Assembly (NCBI GenBank): GCA_021827465.1
Contig: JAKAVX010000012.1
Span: 1-15,305, forward strand
Source: Deltaproteobacteria bacterium
GTDB taxonomy: Bacteria > Desulfobacterota_B > Binatia > Binatales > Binataceae
Length of the DNA stretch: 15,305 nucleotides
Reading direction: 5' to 3'
Under the pieces are notes generated by a model. That model worked only from the letters and a program-made list of their open reading frames with translations, was not told the DNA's origin and searched no databases. Of the stretch, positions 693 through 10,889 are shown one piece after another. The position numbers and the translations under genes were made by a program. Within the stretch, counting starts at the first letter, position 1, and every line of letters begins with the position of its first letter.

Positions 693-3347
693 TCATCCGA
701 GCGCGGCGGCGACCCGTTCCAGCGCCTCGTCGAGCTTCGAGGGATCCTTTCCGCCGGCCTGCGCAAAATCGGGGCGTCCGCCGCCCGAACCGCCGACAAT
801 CGGCGCGATTTGCTTGATAATATCGCCCGCTTTGATGCGCGCGGTCAGGTCGGGAGTGACCGCGACCAGGATGGCGACCTTGTCGTCGCCGAGCACGGAG
901 CCGAGCGCGACCACGCACGAACGATGTTTCTGGCGGAGCCGATCGGCGACTTCGCGCAGCGCGCGCGCCTCGACCCCCTCGACCTTTCGGGTGACGAGCG
1001 TGATACCCCCGACTTCGCGGACATTCTCCTCCGCACCGGCCGCGCCGGCGCCCGTGGCGAGCTTCTGTTCGAGCGCGCGAAGCTTCTTCTCCAGTTCCTT
1101 TTCGCGGGCGAGCAGCTTTTCGAGCCGCTCCAGCGCCTGCGCGTCGCGGGCGCCCAGATGGCTTCCGATTTCCTCGAGAATCTTCTCGCGCCGGCGGATT
1201 GCTTCGACCGCGCCCTGCCCGGTCACGGCCTCTATTCGGCGCACGCCGGCTGCGACGCCCGATTCGGCTTCGAGTTTGAAGAAGCCGACGTCGCCGGTGC
1301 GATTCGCGTGCGTACCGCCGCACAGCTCGATCGAGAAATCGCCCATCCGGACCACGCGCACGCGGTCGCCGTACTTGTCGCCGAAGAAGGCCAGCGCGCC
1401 CGCCTTTATCGCGTCGTCGTAGGCCATCTCCTCGGTCCTGACTTCGGCGTTCTCGCGGATACGCGCGTTGATTTCCTCCTCGATCGTTTCGAGGTCGCCC
1501 GCGCCAACCGGTCCCTGATGGGCGAAGTCGAAGCGGAGCCGATCGGGCGCGACGAGCGAGCCCGCCTGATGCACTCCGGAGCCGAGCAGGTCGCGGAGCG
1601 CGTAGTGCAGGATATGGGTCGCCGAATGATTCAGCATCGCGGCGTCGCGCCGTGCGCGATCGACCTTGAGCGTGACGCGCTGACCGCGCTCGAACTCAAG
1701 GCGATCGCCGCGCAGCAGCTTGCCGACGTGGATTATTGCGCCGTTGCCCTTTCGGGTGTCGAGCACTTCGAGAATCGCGCCCGATTCGGACTCGATAACG
1801 CCGCGGTCGCCGACCTGTCCGCCGCCCTCGGGATAGAAAGGAGTTTCCGCGACGACCACGGCGACGGAGCCGCCCTCGCCGCCGAGCGCCAGGACTTCGG
1901 ATTGGCCTTCGTATTCGTGGTAGCCGACGAAGCGCGACGCGACCGCCGGGCCAAGCTGGATTTCCGGCGCGACCGCTTCTTCCTTGCGAGCGGCGCGGGC
2001 GCGCTCGCGTTGCTCGTCCATCAGGCGGTCGAACTCGGCCACGTCAACGTCGATACCGTCGTTGCGCAGCACGTCCTCGGTCAGATCGAGCGGAAAGCCG
2101 TAGGTATCATAGAGCTTGAAAGCGACTTCGCCGGGGAGCGTATGGCCGCCGCTTTGTTTTAGGCGCGCGCGCTCCTGGTCGATCAGTTCCAGCCCGCGGT
2201 CCAGCGTCTCGCCGAAACGGGTCTCTTCCTGCGTGATTACGTCGGCGATTCGCGCAGCGCGCTCGCGGATTTCCGAATACGCGTCGCCCATCGCCTCGAT
2301 AACGCCCTCGTTGACGCCGGCGAGGAACGGGCGATGAATCCCGAGATAACGGCCGTGGCGCGCGGCGCGGCGAATTATCCGTCGCAGCACATACTCGCGG
2401 TCGGTGTTGCCGGGATTGACTCCCTCGGCGACGAGGAAGGTCATCGTGCGCGCATGGTCGGCGATCGCGCGGAAAGAGACGTCGGATTCTGCGCTGGCGG
2501 CGTAGCGCGCGCCGTCGCCATGCTTGCGCGCGGCTTCCTCGATTCTCCGGATAATCGTCTGGAACAGGTCGATATCGTAATTGCCGAGCAGACGGCCGGT
2601 CTCGAAGGTCTGCATCACGGCGGCGACCCGCTCCAGCCCGGTTCCGGTGTCCACGTGCTTCATCGGAAGCGGCGTCAGCGCTCCCGTGGCGTCGCGGTTG
2701 TACTGGATAAACACCAGGTTACCGAGTTCGATAAACCGCGAGCATCCGTCCACGTTGACCGCACAGGGAACGCCGCGATGCGCGACGCCGTCGCACGCGG
2801 CCGGACCGCGGTCGATGTCGATTTCCGAGTTGGGACCGCACGGCCCTGTCTCGCCCATCTCCCAGAAATTGTCCTTGTCGCCGAAGCGCAGGATGCGATC
2901 CTTGGGCAGTACGCCCATCCTGAGCCAGATTTCTTCGGCTTCGCGGTCGTCCTTATGAACGGTCGCCCACAGCAGCTTGGGATCGATTTCCCAGACCCTG
3001 GTGATCAGGTCCCAATGCCACCGAATCGCTTCTTCCTTGTAATAATCGCCGAACGACCAGTTCCCGAGCATCTCGAAGAACGTGTGATGGTACGTGTCGC
3101 GGCCGACGGCTTCGAGATCGTTGTGCTTGCCCGAGATGCGCAGGCACTTCTGGCAATCCACTACGCGCTTTTCGCTCGGCGTCCGGATAGCGAGGAAATA
3201 ATCCTTGAACGGGACCATCCCGGCGTTGGTGAAAAGCAACGTCGGGTCGCCCTTCGGAACCAGCGAGGCCGAGGGAACGATCGCGTGGCCGCGCTCGCGG
3301 AAAAAGTCTAGAAACGATTGACGTATCTTTGCGGTCGTCCAGCGCAT
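693..3347 (-). CDS. alaS: Alanyl-tRNA synthetase
   Basis: Cytoplasmic class II synthetase that charges tRNA-Ala with alanine and hydrolyses mischarged Ser/Gly-tRNA. The product is 884 residues, the usual full length. Visible landmarks are the catalytic core with LLFTNAGMVPFKDYF (about 38-52), DTYHHTFFEMLGNWSFGDY (about 84-102), ETGPCGPNSEID (about 166-177) and DTGTGLERVA (about 233-242). The editing domain carries the zinc ligands HSATH (His574, His578) and CGGTH (Cys676, His680). The C-Ala domain ends in a Gly-rich GGSGGGRPDFAQAGGK segment. The ATG gives the standard N-terminus (RWTTAKIRQSFLDFF). No clear Shine-Dalgarno precedes it; a TACAAT box lies only 10 bases upstream. It is downstream of the VOC gene on the same strand, 109 bases apart. 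Confidence 0.98.
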   Translation of the reverse strand: MRWTTAKIRQSFLDFFRERGHAIVPSASLVPKGDPTLLFTNAGMVPFKDYFLAIRTPSEKRVVDCQKCLRISGKHNDLEAVGRDTYHHTFFEMLGNWSFGDYYKEEAIRWHWDLITRVWEIDPKLLWATVHKDDREAEEIWLRMGVLPKDRILRFGDKDNFWEMGETGPCGPNSEIDIDRGPAACDGVAHRGVPCAVNVDGCSRFIELGNLVFIQYNRDATGALTPLPMKHVDTGTGLERVAAVMQTFETGRLLGNYDIDLFQTIIRRIEEAARKHGDGARYAASAESDVSFRAIADHARTMTFLVAEGVNPGNTDREYVLRRIIRRAARHGRYLGIHRPFLAGVNEGVIEAMGDAYSEIRERAARIADVITQEETRFGETLDRGLELIDQERARLKQSGGHTLPGEVAFKLYDTYGFPLDLTEDVLRNDGIDVDVAEFDRLMDEQRERARAARKEEAVAPEIQLGPAVASRFVGYHEYEGQSEVLALGGEGGSVAVVVAETPFYPEGGGQVGDRGVIESESGAILEVLDTRKGNGAIIHVGKLLRGDRLEFERGQRVTLKVDRARRDAAMLNHSATHILHYALRDLLGSGVHQAGSLVAPDRLRFDFAHQGPVGAGDLETIEEEINARIRENAEVRTEEMAYDDAIKAGALAFFGDKYGDRVRVVRMGDFSIELCGGTHANRTGDVGFFKLEAESGVAAGVRRIEAVTGQGAVEAIRRREKILEEIGSHLGARDAQALERLEKLLAREKELEKKLRALEQKLATGAGAAGAEENVREVGGITLVTRKVEGVEARALREVADRLRQKHRSCVVALGSVLGDDKVAILVAVTPDLTARIKAGDIIKQIAPIVGGSGGGRPDFAQAGGKDPSKLDEALERVAAALG

Positions 3348-6026: not shown

Positions 6027-6383
6027 TCAGCGCGCGGAATCGGCCGACGATATCGGCGTGATTCGCCCGGGACTGACTTCGAAGACGTAATGCTTCTGGT
6101 TGGGCCGCACATAAACCAGCATATCGCCGCCCGTGTCCTTCATCCGATAGACCTGCGAGGGTTCGCCGAGGGTCTTGATGACGTGGCTCGCGTCTCTGCC
6201 GAGCCACTGCTGCCTCGCCTCGCCGGTCGCCATGTCGCCGTAGGGCGGTCCGACAAGGACATTGCTGACGTAAAGCGAGGATTGCGAAGGCGTCTCAGCC
6301 ATCGTAGCCCGGCTTCCGCAGAATCCGGTGCCGACGGCCATCGCTACGATCCCAATCATCGCCGCAGCTTTGAAACTTCTCAC
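6027..6383 (-). CDS. Small exported SmpA/BamE-like protein
   Basis: The start is set at GTG 6381-6383 because a perfect GGAGG (6392-6396) lies 8 bases upstream. The longer in-frame GTG at 6398 would overlap this ribosome site. The product is 118 residues: a signal peptide (RSFKAAAMIGIVAMAVGTGF) with a likely signal peptidase I site after Thr-Met-Ala, and no proper lipobox around the Cys. The mature part has WLGRDASHVIKTLGEPSQVY and a Gly-Gly-Asp-Met-Leu-Val-Tyr strand, the pattern of SmpA/OmlA-type modules in which a Leu-Gly-x-Pro turn is followed by a beta strand. The role is probably periplasmic, but the function is not known and the family match is by pattern only. Confidence 0.7.
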   Translation of the reverse strand: MRSFKAAAMIGIVAMAVGTGFCGSRATMAETPSQSSLYVSNVLVGPPYGDMATGEARQQWLGRDASHVIKTLGEPSQVYRMKDTGGDMLVYVRPNQKHYVFEVSPGRITPISSADSAR

Positions 6384-6407
6384 CGTTGGTACCTCCACGA
6401 TTTCGGA

Positions 6408-6433
6408 TTCCGGCCCGATTAAGCGGGCCGGAA
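6408..6433 (-). promoter_or_regulatory. 10-bp perfect stem-loop in the leader of the SmpA-like gene
   Basis: TTCCGGCCCG and CGGGCCGGAA pair perfectly around a 6-base loop. The hairpin ends about 11 bases before the GGAGG of the SmpA-like gene and is not followed by a T-run on either strand. This position fits a 5' leader structure or an upstream transcription barrier more than a classical terminator. The hairpin is seen; any regulatory role is inferred. Confidence 0.4.
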
Positions 6434-6529
6434 ATCATTGAGACCTTTCGCGGAGCGAAGAGCGTGCCACCCCAACAGAGGGTTCCATCCAGGCCGGATT
6501 TAAGGCGCATTTCCCTGTCTTTCTGTGAA

Positions 6530-6543
6530 ATTTTGGCCAAAAT
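6530..6543. repeat. 14-bp perfect palindrome ATTTTGGCCAAAAT
   Basis: Perfect palindrome in the AT-rich core of the intergenic region, about 150 bases upstream of the SmpA-like start. Symmetry and position suggest a dimeric-regulator site, but no regulator can be named. Confidence 0.5.
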
Positions 6544-6599
6544 ATTTACAAAACCCCAAAAATCTGCGACACGCGGGTTCCCTTGCATTCGCAGAGTAG

Positions 6600-6616
6600 T
6601 TTCGCGAGTCGCGAAA
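6600..6616. repeat. Inverted repeat TTTCGCGA-N1-TCGCGAAA
   Basis: Two 8-bp arms separated by one base. As RNA it would form a short hairpin (TTTCGC stem); as DNA it is a near-perfect operator-like palindrome. On the plus strand it is followed by more A residues. Function unknown. Confidence 0.45.
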
Positions 6617-6631
6617 AAGCGCGTCGACCGA

Positions 6632-6652
6632 TTTGCTTAACGCGAAAGCAAA
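6632..6652 (-). repeat. Stem-loop TTTGCTT-N7-AAGCAAA
   Basis: Perfect 7-bp arms with a 7-base loop. It lies about 70 bases past the TAA of the OsmC-family gene and, with the stem-loop at 6670-6686, could help end that transcript. No uridine run follows immediately. Confidence 0.3.
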
Positions 6653-6669
6653 ACGAATAGACCGTGACA

Positions 6670-6686
6670 CCGCAGGTCCTCTGCGG
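6670..6686 (-). terminator. Stem-loop downstream of OsmC-family gene, weak terminator candidate
   Basis: CCGCAG-N5-CTGCGG forms a 6-bp stem about 38 bases after the TAA at 6724-6726. A T-rich stretch (minus strand TTCGTTTTGCTTTC) starts about 11 bases further on. The geometry is poor for an intrinsic terminator. Confidence 0.25.
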
Positions 6687-6723
6687 CATCGGCCGGGGAT
6701 TCAGCAGTTCGCCGGGAGGCGTG

Positions 6724-7167
6724 TTAGCCGGGGACTACTTCCAGCTCAACCGTCGTGTCGGGGGTCGCGACCGCGACCGAACCGTAGAGGGGTCAGCGAT
6801 GCTTGTACACCTCGACCATCTGGCGCGCCCTGTCCTCGGGGATACCCGCCATCCGAAAACGCATCCGCGCGTTTGCGAGCACGGGAGGTCCGGTATGCTT
6901 CGCCTCGGTATCGATGGTCGCGTCCATCGAGACTTCGACATGCTTCAGCGGAACGTTCTCGGCACGAGCGATTCGCTCCATCATCATCGTGGCGCATCCT
7001 GTGATGCCGGCGAGGAACAATTCGAGCGCGTTGACCGCTTCGCCCGGGCCGCCGTGGCCGGCGGTGTCGTCGAAGATGAGATGGTTCTGGCGGGCGCTCA
7101 GGATATGCCGCCCGGGGATTCCGGTGCTGTGGGCTTTCACCCCACCGGTCAGATACCGATCGGCCAT
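6724..7167 (-). CDS. OsmC-family redox protein with selenocysteine (in-frame TGA recoded)
   Basis: OsmC/Ohr-family proteins are cytoplasmic thiol peroxidases with two redox cysteines. The frame from ATG 7165-7167 (GGGAGG at 7177-7182, 9 bases upstream) reads FLAGITGCATMMMERIA with the first redox Cys58, reaches VEVYKHR, then TGA at 6793-6795. The same frame continues PLYGSVAVATPDTTVELEVV-Pro-Gly to a TAA at 6724-6726. Family members have Cys-Pro at this point, so TGA replaces the second catalytic Cys and is read as Sec125; the whole protein is 147 residues, a normal family length, against 124 without the family C-terminus. A suitable SECIS-like hairpin follows. The gene lies 19 bases after the DUF3047 gene, downstream of recA. 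Alternatives are a nonsense mutation or a base error (TGC/TGT to TGA). Recoding needs selABCD elsewhere in the genome. Confidence 0.87.
6759..6784 (-). promoter_or_regulatory. Bacterial SECIS-like hairpin following the Sec codon
   Basis: Downstream of TGA 6793-6795 the mRNA can form GGUCGC (6778-6773) paired to GCGACC (6768-6763), six Watson-Crick pairs around a GGUC loop (6772-6769). An outer CGG/CCG stem (6784-6782 with 6761-6759) follows across an asymmetric internal loop. Twenty bases separate the UGA from the apical loop and the loop begins with G; both agree with the general bacterial SECIS model (loop about 16-37 bases after UGA, G among its first two bases). This is the site SelB would bind. 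GC-rich DNA forms hairpins easily, so by itself this is supportive, not decisive. Confidence 0.7.
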
Positions 7168-7186
7168 CGGTTTGCACCTCCCGGAT

Positions 7187-8299
7187 TCAGATGACTTTCA
7201 GCGAATGGGTTCCGTCGTCGAGCGTGATATCCGCGAACTCGCATCGCCCCTCGCGCCGCTGAAACAGGCTCACGGCTATCAGCCATACGCGCACGATTCG
7301 CGCCGGTATCGGACCGCCGATCGCCGCGCGGTAATCGGCGTGGACGTTGCGCTCCTCGCCGAACCATCGCCCAAGCCCGACCGCCCCGGAGCGGACCACG
7401 AGATGGGTCTCGCGCGCGGTCCACGACGGCAGCGGGCATCGGAAGGACGTTTCGGGTTCGAGCGCCTTGCTCCAGTAGTAGGTAAGGTCCTGTCCGTTGT
7501 CGAACTCGACCGCGATACTCATGTAGTCGTGGACCGAGGCGTCGTTCTCGGCGACTTCGGACGGCAGCGCGTCGATCTTCCACGACCATCCAAGGCGCGT
7601 CTTCGGCGAGAGCGCGAATTCGGCGTCCTTGTGCAGGATTCCGACGTCGCAGTGCGTGCGGCATTCGATATGACCGGGCGATTTGCCGTTTCGATGGAAA
7701 ATCTCCGCCGCTCCGAGGAACCATAGATAGTCCCATCCCGAGGGCGGCGGAACGAACGAAGCGAGGCGATCGCGTTCTGCCGCAAGCATCCCGAGCGGAT
7801 CGCCCTTGGCGGCGAGCGAGCGTAGCGCGTCGAGCGGTTCCACTTCGCGGCGCCATCGGAGCACGGCGACCGCGACTCCGCCTGCGGCGCCCTGAAAAAG
7901 CTCGGGCGGCGTGGCGAGCCGTCCCGTCGGATCGGCCCAGTCGCCGGGAAAATGATTGCCGAGATAGAGCTTGCCCGCGTGCTCGGCGCGAAACGTATTG
8001 GTGTCGCGTCCGCCGCGGAAAATCGGTCCCGCTTCGCCGATTCGGAACCATAGCTGGAACGACGTCGGGAACCATAGTGCGGGTGCCCCCGCGAGGTAGG
8101 CTTTGCCGCGCGCGAGCGTGGTCATGCGATCGGCGCTTTCCAGCGCGAGTCCGCTATCGAACCAGGGCGGAAGATTCGCGGGCAGATAAAGGAAGCGGTA
8201 ATCGCTCAGTAATTCGCGTCCGGCGCCTTCAAACAGCGGCCCGTAGGCGTTTTTCAGATCGTCAACGGAGAGTTCGCGTTCTTCGTCCGCCACGTTCAT
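7187..8299 (-). CDS. DUF3047-like protein
   Basis: A 370-residue protein from ATG 8297-8299, 32 bases after the recA stop; the longer open frame to 8533 overlaps recA and is rejected. No clear signal peptide or membrane segment. The C-terminal half shows the DUF3047-like pattern: LGWSWKIDALPSE (about 236-248), then HDYMSIAVEF (257-266), TYYWSKALEP, CPLPSW, ETHLVVRSG (297-305), LGRWFGEERNVHADYRAAIG (309-328) and PARIVRVWLIAVS. This suggests a beta-sandwich domain of unknown role. The first 180 residues are Trp/Phe-rich (ALWFPTSFQLWFRIG) and not recognised. It is probably cotranscribed with recA and the OsmC-family gene. The function is not known; the family match is by pattern. Confidence 0.75.
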   Translation of the reverse strand: MNVADEERELSVDDLKNAYGPLFEGAGRELLSDYRFLYLPANLPPWFDSGLALESADRMTTLARGKAYLAGAPALWFPTSFQLWFRIGEAGPIFRGGRDTNTFRAEHAGKLYLGNHFPGDWADPTGRLATPPELFQGAAGGVAVAVLRWRREVEPLDALRSLAAKGDPLGMLAAERDRLASFVPPPSGWDYLWFLGAAEIFHRNGKSPGHIECRTHCDVGILHKDAEFALSPKTRLGWSWKIDALPSEVAENDASVHDYMSIAVEFDNGQDLTYYWSKALEPETSFRCPLPSWTARETHLVVRSGAVGLGRWFGEERNVHADYRAAIGGPIPARIVRVWLIAVSLFQRREGRCEFADITLDDGTHSLKVI

Positions 8300-10112: not shown

Positions 10113-10712
10113 TCACTTCGAGAGTTCCCACTCGACCAGCGCCAGGCGGTCATTGCCGAAGAACATCACGCCGTCCACGAAAATCGTCGGCGAGCCGAAG
10201 CCGCCGCGCTCGATCAGTTCCTCGGTGTTGGCGCGAAGCCTCGCCTTGTACTCGGGCGAATTGATCTTCTCGAAGAACTCGCCTTCGTCCAGCCCGACCG
10301 CGCGCACGATATCGCGCATCACGTCGTCTTGGTTGATATCGAGATCGTCGCCCCAGTAGCTCTCGAACACGCGCCGCGAGTAAGCCGAGATTTTCCCGTG
10401 CTCGAGCGCGACGAACGCGCCGCGCATGGCCTTTACCGAGTTGACCGGGAATACCGTAGGGTTGCCGATTTTGATTCCGTAGAACGCGGCCCAGTCCTGA
10501 AGGTCCTTGGCGTAGTAGCGCGCCTTGGGTTTGACCGGGTTGGTGCGCGATTCGTAGACGGAGGGATTAACAGCATTGAACACGCCGCCGACCAGGATCG
10601 GCTTCCATATGAGGTCCGCCTGATGACGGCGTGCGACGTCTTCGATTTTCGTGAAAGCGAGATAGGTCCAGGGACTCGAACAGTCATAGAAGAACTCAAG
10701 CTTCTTGCCCAC
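10113..10712 (-). CDS. DsbA-family / 2-hydroxychromene-2-carboxylate isomerase-like protein
   Basis: Starts at GTG 10710-10712 with GGAGG (10720-10724) 7 bases upstream; an in-frame start at 10862 would add 50 non-family residues. The product is 199 residues, normal for the GST-kappa/HCCA isomerase group. The N-terminus KKLEFFYDCSSPWTYLAFTKIE has Cys11-Ser-Ser13-Pro where HCCA isomerases carry the glutathione-binding Ser; a CxxC pair is absent, so a disulfide oxidase role is unlikely. The C-terminus GGFGSPTIFVDGVMFFGNDRL is the typical cis-Pro and Asp-Arg-Leu segment. No signal peptide, so probably a cytoplasmic glutathione-dependent isomerase or transferase. The substrate is unknown. Confidence 0.88.
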   Translation of the reverse strand: MGKKLEFFYDCSSPWTYLAFTKIEDVARRHQADLIWKPILVGGVFNAVNPSVYESRTNPVKPKARYYAKDLQDWAAFYGIKIGNPTVFPVNSVKAMRGAFVALEHGKISAYSRRVFESYWGDDLDINQDDVMRDIVRAVGLDEGEFFEKINSPEYKARLRANTEELIERGGFGSPTIFVDGVMFFGNDRLALVEWELSK

Positions 10713-10889
10713 GGGCGATCCTCCAGGCGAGTGGGGCGGCGCGGCCGGCGGTTTCAAACCGGCTCCGAGACGCGCGCCTCGACTGAATCGAATATCACGC
10801 CAACCGTCCGCCCGACCAGTCACGGCTCGCGAGCGGGCCGCAACCACGCGGATTTGCTCCAACCGAACGCGTCGTTGTCGGGACCCGTC

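What the first reader, a model, noticed from the sequence alone, without database searches (positions are those of the whole stretch)
6724..7167. OsmC-family gene with an in-frame TGA at the redox cysteine: a probable selenoprotein
Standard gene calling would stop at TGA 6793-6795 and lose the C-terminus. The frame continues for 22 codons with family-like sequence (PLYGSVAVATPD and on) to a clean TAA. The TGA sits exactly where OsmC proteins have the Cys of a Cys-Pro motif, and Cys58 provides the other redox residue. A GGUC-loop hairpin follows at SECIS distance. Four independent lines of evidence agree. From memory, Sec-containing OsmC-like proteins have been reported in metagenomic selenoproteomes, so the family may be known; this locus and its coupling to recA and a DUF3047 gene may be new.
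Basis: partly seen in the sequence, partly recalled or inferred. Interest (0 to 1): 0.92.

Follow-up and report, generated by a model that had tools for sequence, protein, structure and literature searches.

The report
OsmC selenoprotein read through UGA
This bacterial gene very probably uses the stop codon UGA to insert selenocysteine at a redox site of a small OsmC-type protein, so most of its relatives in databases appear cut short.

Summary
The finding is real. On the minus strand (7167-6724) an OsmC-family gene has an in-frame TGA as codon 125, then 22 more codons to TAA. In 16 of 120 listed homologs this position is Cys in CPLYGSVA; the other 104 database proteins end one residue before it. 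DNA of 13 related genomes shows TGA there in 13 of 13, with a like tail. The tail is under protein-level selection (pN/pS 0.34). A 6-bp hairpin starting 14 nt after the TGA forms in all 14 genes, and the third codon positions that pair never change. Nine of those genomes were checked for Sec genes: selA, selB and selD in 9 of 9, tRNA-Sec (UCA) in 7 of 9. The window's own genome is not held. Sec would replace the second Cys of the OsmC/Ohr pair. OsmC-like selenoproteins have been known since 2005, with motif UxxT. This group has UPLY (UPLF once) and scores 42.1 against the 95-bit cut-off of the curated OsmC (seleno)protein model, so I call it a new variant of a known kind. The proposed recA/DUF3047 coupling is not conserved; alaS is the usual neighbour.

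The parts
6724..7167 (-). OsmC-family gene read through TGA: 147 residues, ATG 7167 to TAA 6726-6724
   Evidence: translate; Pfam OsmC 51.6 bits over residues 40-133; AlphaFold best model pLDDT 88.4, with C for U
6793..6795 (-). In-frame TGA, codon 125, proposed selenocysteine codon
   Evidence: Cys in the 16 full-length proteins among 120 listed homologs; TGA in 14 of 14 genes with DNA, window included
6763..6778 (-). SECIS-like hairpin: stem 6778-6773 / 6768-6763, loop GGUC 6772-6769; stem starts 14 nt and loop 20 nt after the TGA
   Evidence: 6 of 6 pairs in 14 of 14 genes, one pair with a change on both sides; invariant paired third codon positions
6727..6792 (-). Tail PLYGSVAVATPDTTVELEVVPG: last helix and last beta strand of the modelled OsmC fold
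   Evidence: pN/pS 0.337 outside hairpin codons versus 0.427 upstream; helix 126-134 and strand 138-145
6994..6996 (-). Codon of Cys58, first cysteine of the OsmC/Ohr pair
   Evidence: Invariant in A1 (25 rows) and A2 (40 rows); aligns with the first Cys of the chains shown
7021..7023 (-). Codon of Glu49, invariant, nine residues before Cys58
   Evidence: one residue off the Glu of Ohr chains in the alignments
7175..7182 (-). Shine-Dalgarno-like GGGAGGTG before the ATG
   Evidence: Sequence; inference

Best explanation
The gene encodes a 147-residue OsmC-like selenoprotein. When the ribosome meets UGA at codon 125, SelB with Sec-tRNA(Sec) binds the hairpin just downstream and inserts selenocysteine; translation then goes on through the last helix and strand to UAA. 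Sec125 takes the place of the second redox cysteine of OsmC/Ohr proteins and would work with Cys58 (the distance between them was not measured here). The likeliest chemistry is thiol-dependent reduction of an organic hydroperoxide or a similar electrophile. Either Cys58 is oxidised and Sec125 resolves it as a selenenylsulfide, or the selenolate reacts first and Cys58 resolves; a cellular dithiol then resets the pair. Shown by comparison: UGA in place of Cys, the conserved tail, the constrained hairpin, and Sec genes in relatives. Inferred: actual Sec insertion, the selenenylsulfide and the substrate.
For: Of 120 listed homologs (127 found), 104 stop at the residue before the site and 16 have Cys in CPLYGSVA; a second search from an alignment of more distant rows listed 109 further proteins, all with Cys-Pro at the site. 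DNA: TGA in 14 of 14 genes (window plus 13 genomes, the ones with a match at E <= 1e-15 among 41 of one order), while their terminal stops vary: 7 TGA, 4 TAG, 3 TAA. Tail outside the hairpin: pS 0.59, pN 0.199, ratio 0.337; 120 codons upstream 0.427. Hairpin codons: pS 0.135. The four fourfold sites whose third base pairs have no variation, against 2 of 49 comparable sites upstream; six random upstream columns are as constrained in 2 of 100000 draws. 6 of 6 pairs in 14 of 14, with GC to AU at one pair. selA, selB, selD over cut-off in 9 of 9 genomes, the selD match itself with one TGA in 9 of 9; tRNA-Sec (tca) in 7 of 9. The 50 listed PDB matches are led by OsmC/Ohr chains, with alignments of 141-162 columns, gaps included. 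Both Cys positions align with the chains shown.
Against: The window's own genome is not held. Its closest relative G001 and also G009 gave no tRNA-Sec: the best match of each is a tRNA-Ser. Both are fragmented (contig numbers reach C175 in G001 and C370 in G009), so absence is not proof. The Rfam tRNA-Sec cut-off is itself not specific: 5 of 14 control genomes exceed it; only the best match of each of the nine genomes was given to ARAGORN. The single-sequence hairpin is not exceptional. Covariation rests on one pair, and its shuffle control is moderate to weak (24/500 on three measures, 217/500 on two). If the codons were inherited as one shared choice, all 14 genes would form the hairpin in 1253 of 20000 draws. 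No DNA of a Cys-type homolog with this tail could be obtained, so it is unknown whether those genes lack the hairpin. No protein evidence exists. For the chemistry: the invariant Glu lies at Cys58-9, whereas in the Ohr chains the Glu lies one residue earlier (its catalytic role is recalled), so an Ohr-type peroxidase is not established.
Confidence: 0.95

Rival explanations
1. The TGA is the true stop: a 124-residue OsmC-like protein ends there and the rest is a relic or an untranslated region.
For: 104 of 120 listed database homologs end there, as any gene caller that treats UGA as a stop would have it. In the window 7 of 13 other presumed genes end in TGA.
Against: Tail under purifying selection; the tail matches the CPLYGSVA tails of Cys homologs; the site is never TAA or TAG in 14 of 14 genes; the cut would remove the last helix and strand of the model.
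Confidence: 0.02
2. UGA is read as another amino acid (Trp, Gly or Cys) by a changed genetic code, or by leaky near-cognate readthrough.
For: The frame is open after UGA.
Against: UGA ends 7 of 13 other presumed window genes (5 of the 8 with a Pfam match) and 7 of 14 of these osmC genes, so it is not a general sense codon. The position is Cys in the 16 full-length proteins among 120 listed homologs. selA is found in 38 of 41 genomes of the order.
Confidence: 0.01
3. Sequencing or assembly error: the true codon is TGC or TGT.
For: Cys is the alternative residue in homologs; the window is a single contig.
Against: The same TGA appears in 13 related genome records, and 104 of 120 listed protein clusters are cut at the same place.
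Confidence: 0.01
4. It is a selenoprotein but not a peroxide reductase: a YhfA-type (COG1765) thiol/selenol protein acting on sulfane sulfur, a disulfide or another electrophile. (This rival concerns the chemistry only and is compatible with Sec.)
For: The Glu sits at Cys58-9, not at the Ohr position; scores to the Ohr and OsmC peroxidase models are far under cut-off (26.5 of 88.85; 18.9 of 85.8); 1ml8 (recalled as E. coli YhfA) is among the fold matches.
Against: Nothing decisive; both cysteine positions of Ohr are kept.
Confidence: 0.4

Closest known systems
OsmC-like selenoprotein of the Sargasso Sea and GOS surveys (PMC1088965, PMC2398784; passages seen)
   Same: OsmC superfamily protein with UGA in place of a Cys and a bacterial SECIS-like hairpin directly downstream
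   Different: Their listed motif is UxxT (3 sequences in the Sargasso table; the GOS row reads 5, 3, 161, column heads not seen); here U-P-L-Y/F. Their sequences were not obtainable, so position and kinship were not compared directly.
NCBIfam NF041052, OsmC-related (seleno)protein
   Same: Best of the four NCBIfam matches of the window protein (42.1 bits)
   Different: Curated cut-off is 95 bits. None of the 41 genomes of the order has a match over the cut-off.
Ohr / OsmC organic hydroperoxide reductases
   Same: Fold and both redox positions
   Different: Second Cys is Sec; the Glu is shifted by one residue; model scores far under cut-off
SelD selenophosphate synthetase of the same genomes
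   Same: Also has an in-frame UGA with a hairpin just downstream
   Different: Different protein; in the 8 loci where the frame was found the loop starts 17 nt after UGA and is GGC or GGA in the best hairpin

Membership tests
OsmC superfamily (PF02566) | Score over Pfam gathering cut-off | tested here: met
   51.6 bits against 27.5
OsmC superfamily (PF02566) | OsmC fold | tested here: met
   AlphaFold best model pLDDT 88.4, the five range from 73.7; the listed Foldseek hits are led by OsmC/Ohr chains, best E 3.3e-9
Bacterial selenoprotein | In-frame UGA at a conserved Cys position, frame conserved beyond | tested here: met
Bacterial selenoprotein | SECIS: stem-loop just after UGA, small apical loop with G | tested here: met
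   6-bp stem, loop GGUC, CGUG or GGUG, 14 of 14. bSECISearch or a SECIS covariance model was not run; Rfam gave no SECIS match.
Bacterial selenoprotein | selA, selB, selC, selD in the same genome | tested here: inconclusive
   Own genome not held. In relatives: selA, selB, selD 9 of 9, tRNA-Sec 7 of 9.
Bacterial selenoprotein | Selenium in the protein | not testable with these tools
   Needs mass spectrometry or 75Se labelling
NF041052 OsmC-related (seleno)protein | Score over curated cut-off | tested here: not met
   42.1 against 95 bits
Known OsmC-like selenoprotein (UxxT) | Motif UxxT | tested here: not met
   UPLY in 13 and UPLF in 1 of 14 genes; UxxT in PMC1088965, PMC2398784, PMC9312934, PMC13188914 (passages)
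Ohr peroxidase (TIGR03561) | Score over curated cut-off | tested here: not met
   26.5 against 88.85
Ohr peroxidase (TIGR03561) | Two active-site Cys positions | tested here: met
   Cys58 and codon 125 align with the two Cys of Ohr chains; the second is Sec
Ohr peroxidase (TIGR03561) | Catalytic Glu ten residues before the first Cys (role recalled) | tested here: not met
   Invariant Glu49 lies nine before Cys58; residue 48 aligns with the Ohr Glu (read)

The most novel reading that the evidence does not exclude
A distinct CPLY-type OsmC subfamily has replaced its second redox cysteine by Sec at least twice: once in the ancestor of the window's lineage (Candidatus Binataceae and kin) and again among 24 listed proteins (P0098-P0121) that lie among Cys-type rows and all stop at the same residue. 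Sec would thus be favoured at the resolving position of this enzyme rather than at the classical peroxidatic one.
Probability: 0.55. Interest if true: 0.5.

Novelty: new variant of a known kind. Interest (0 to 1): 0.42.

Why it matters
It adds a well-supported subgroup to an OsmC selenoprotein class that the surveys list with few sequences and one motif, in a lineage for which my searches found no selenoprotein paper. It also shows that 104 of 120 listed database relatives are cut short at their redox residue (80 of them in the window's own branch), which would mislead any functional or structural study. Sec and Cys forms of one small fold offer a clean test of what selenium gains at the second cysteine.

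Tried and rejected
No whole genome for the window, so the Sec machinery was tested only in relatives. The single-protein scan of genome contigs found nothing; the alignment scan gave nine loci. Rfam over 6500-7200 gave three matches, all far under gathering score. Folding energy alone does not single out the hairpin. Searches for Cys-type or second-branch DNA in viral contigs and plasmids found none, so the planned Sec-versus-Cys comparison of the hairpin could not be made. The selA co-occurrence test does not discriminate: 13 of 13 carriers and 25 of 28 non-carriers in the order have selA. The phylum sample gave 19 matching genomes of 297; only two matches were strong, both already known, and the rest (E 1.2e-7 or weaker) were distant OsmC proteins. 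L079, the strongest NF041052 match in the order (84.3 bits), is a Cys-type paralog without TGA and did not help to place UxxT. The wish to call it an Ohr peroxidase was dropped because of the shifted Glu and low model scores. The recA/DUF3047 coupling was tested and not borne out. A promoter/terminator scan of 6350-7300 found nothing above shuffles. One broad paper search (four papers listed) added nothing and none of its three new papers was opened.

Full report
The observation. On the minus strand, ATG at 7167 opens a frame of 124 codons that ends at TGA 6795-6793. Read through, it continues 22 codons to TAA 6726-6724. Pfam OsmC covers residues 40-133, across the TGA. A Shine-Dalgarno-like GGGAGGTG precedes the ATG. 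The window's genome is not held, so further evidence comes from relatives.

Homologs. A protein search gave 127 matches, 120 listed. In 104 of those 120 the database protein ends at the residue before the site (judged by their shared ends; 8 of them are in alignment A1). The other 16 continue with CPLYGSVA; none has another residue. A second search, from an alignment of Cys-type and second-branch rows, had 5152 matches; the 109 new ones among its 120 listed all have Cys-Pro there. Downstream of the site the window reads PLYGSVAVATPDTTVEL, like the tails of P0087 and P0095.

DNA of relatives. The alignment scan of genome contigs used patterns upstream of the site and gave nine loci. A search of the 41 held genomes of the same order, at E <= 1e-15, gave 13 with a match, including those nine. 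All 13 have exactly one TGA inside the frame, at the same place (codon 125; 126 in three that have one more residue upstream), followed by PL[YF]GS. The terminal stops of the 14 genes (window included) are 7 TGA, 4 TAG and 3 TAA, while the inner codon is TGA in 14 of 14. One of the nine record titles names Candidatus Binataceae, and so do source names of P0016, P0024 and P0067; the other eight titles say Deltaproteobacteria, Proteobacteria or bacterium.

Selection on the tail. Over all pairs of the 14 genes, the tail outside the hairpin codons has pS 0.59 and pN 0.199 (ratio 0.337); the 120 codons upstream have 0.583 and 0.249 (0.427). So the tail evolves as translated protein (one codon was left out of two tails to keep register).

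Hairpin. After 14 nt comes a stem GGUCGC/GCGACC with loop GGUC. Loops CGUG (three genes) and GGUG (one) occur in relatives, always with the loop starting 20 nt after the TGA. All 14 genes form 6 of 6 pairs. One pair is GC, AU or GU and its neighbour UA or UG, in genes where the encoded residues also change (Val to Ile, Thr to Val). The four fourfold sites whose third base is in the stem (codons 130, 131, 134, 135) never differ, while the two whose third base lies in the loop (132, 133) do. Upstream, 2 of 49 comparable sites are invariant. Six random upstream columns are as constrained as codons 130-135 in 2 of 100000 draws. With synonymous codons redrawn independently, no draw of 20000 gave 14 of 14 (maximum 9); with one shared codon per column and residue, 1253 of 20000 did, so that test alone does not exclude a single inherited chance hairpin. 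For one sequence the hairpin is unremarkable. Shuffle support for covariation is moderate to weak.

Sec machinery. In the nine genomes, selA, selB and selD exceed their curated cut-offs in 9 of 9, and the best selD match contains one TGA in 9 of 9; the selA match of G004 is cut by a contig end. For tRNA-Sec the best Rfam match of each genome was given to ARAGORN: 7 of 9 are tRNA-Sec with anticodon TCA; in G001 and G009 it is tRNA-Ser. The Rfam cut-off alone is not specific: 5 of 14 control genomes exceed it. A hairpin follows the selD TGA in 8 of 8 loci where my script found the SelD frame; for L037 it picked another frame, which I did not pursue. In the order, selA is found in 38 of 41 genomes: 13 of 13 with this gene and 25 of 28 without.

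Structure and chemistry. The best model (pLDDT 88.4; the five range down to 73.7) has a helix 126-134 and a strand 138-145 after the site; a 124-residue product would lack both. The listed PDB matches are led by OsmC and Ohr proteins. By profile alignment Cys58 and codon 125 fall on the two cysteines of Ohr chains. In Ohr the first is peroxidatic and the second resolving (recalled). So Sec sits at the resolving-type position. The invariant Glu49 is at Cys58-9, one residue off the Ohr Glu, so the substrate remains open.

Neighbours. alaS is the next match downstream on the same strand in 9 of 9 loci L001-L009; between the tblastn matches lie 62-178 nt in eight and 736 nt in L001. In the window it is about 3.4 kb downstream. 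recA was found upstream only in L001 (in the window it is upstream with DUF3047 between), and DUF3047 in none of the 14 loci (13 places; L047 repeats L006) nor in the four wider regions. L003 and L007 hold only 0.5 and 1.2 kb upstream, so recA there is not excluded. Of the four wider regions, three have alaS 5.3-5.5 kb away on the opposite strand and one has none in 10.5 kb.

Evolution. In a tree of 80 chosen proteins (residues before the site only; 25 of this lineage, 24 of the second truncated group, 31 Cys-type) the 25 rows of this lineage form one side of a branch (support 90/79, 88% of bootstraps). The 24 others lie among Cys-type rows and need 3 changes, with P0118 apart and two Cys rows inside. 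The tree has few columns and the program warns of long branches. For the second group no DNA was seen, so Sec there is inference.

Known or new. OsmC-like selenoproteins were reported from the Sargasso Sea (PMC1088965) and GOS (PMC2398784), and are listed in two reviews (PMC9312934, PMC13188914), each time as UxxT (passages seen). NCBIfam has OsmC_like_Se with cut-off 95; the window protein scores 42.1 and no genome of the order exceeds the cut-off. Paper searches: OsmC-like with selenoprotein and selenocysteine, 5 papers, 4 opened, PMC7435645 seen in the listing only; OsmC with selenocysteine, 10 papers, the same 4 opened, the rest seen in the listing only; a broader search listed 12 of 153, of which the same 4 and PMC1794560 were looked into by passages. 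Binatota with selenocysteine gave one paper, where the word is only in a reference title (PMC9999580); Binatota with selenoprotein none; the NCBIfam name none. None of what I saw describes this subgroup, but the library holds open-licence papers only. I judge it a new variant of a known kind.

Noticed in passing
L001-L009; window 693-3347 and 6724-7167: alaS is the next match after the Sec-type osmC on the same strand in 9 of 9 loci (62-178 nt between matches in eight, 736 in L001); in the window four presumed genes lie between. Possible operon, unexplained.
   Followed up: partly
P0098-P0121 (protein ids): 24 further OsmC-like proteins, lying among Cys-type rows in the tree, end at the same residue before the Cys position: probable second UGA group; no DNA obtained.
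   Followed up: partly
L037-L045: selD itself carries an in-frame TGA in 9 of 9 genomes, with GGTCC-GG[CA]-GGACC soon after it in the 8 loci where the frame was found.
   Followed up: partly
G005:C18:23069-23160 and 25930-26021: Two strong tRNA-Sec matches (72.0 and 68.7 bits) about 2.8 kb apart in one genome; only the first was confirmed by ARAGORN.
   Followed up: no
window 10113-10862: DsbA-family protein with a weak match (17.6 bits, cut-off 190) to a thioredoxin-like (seleno)lipoprotein model; no internal TGA in its frame.
   Followed up: no
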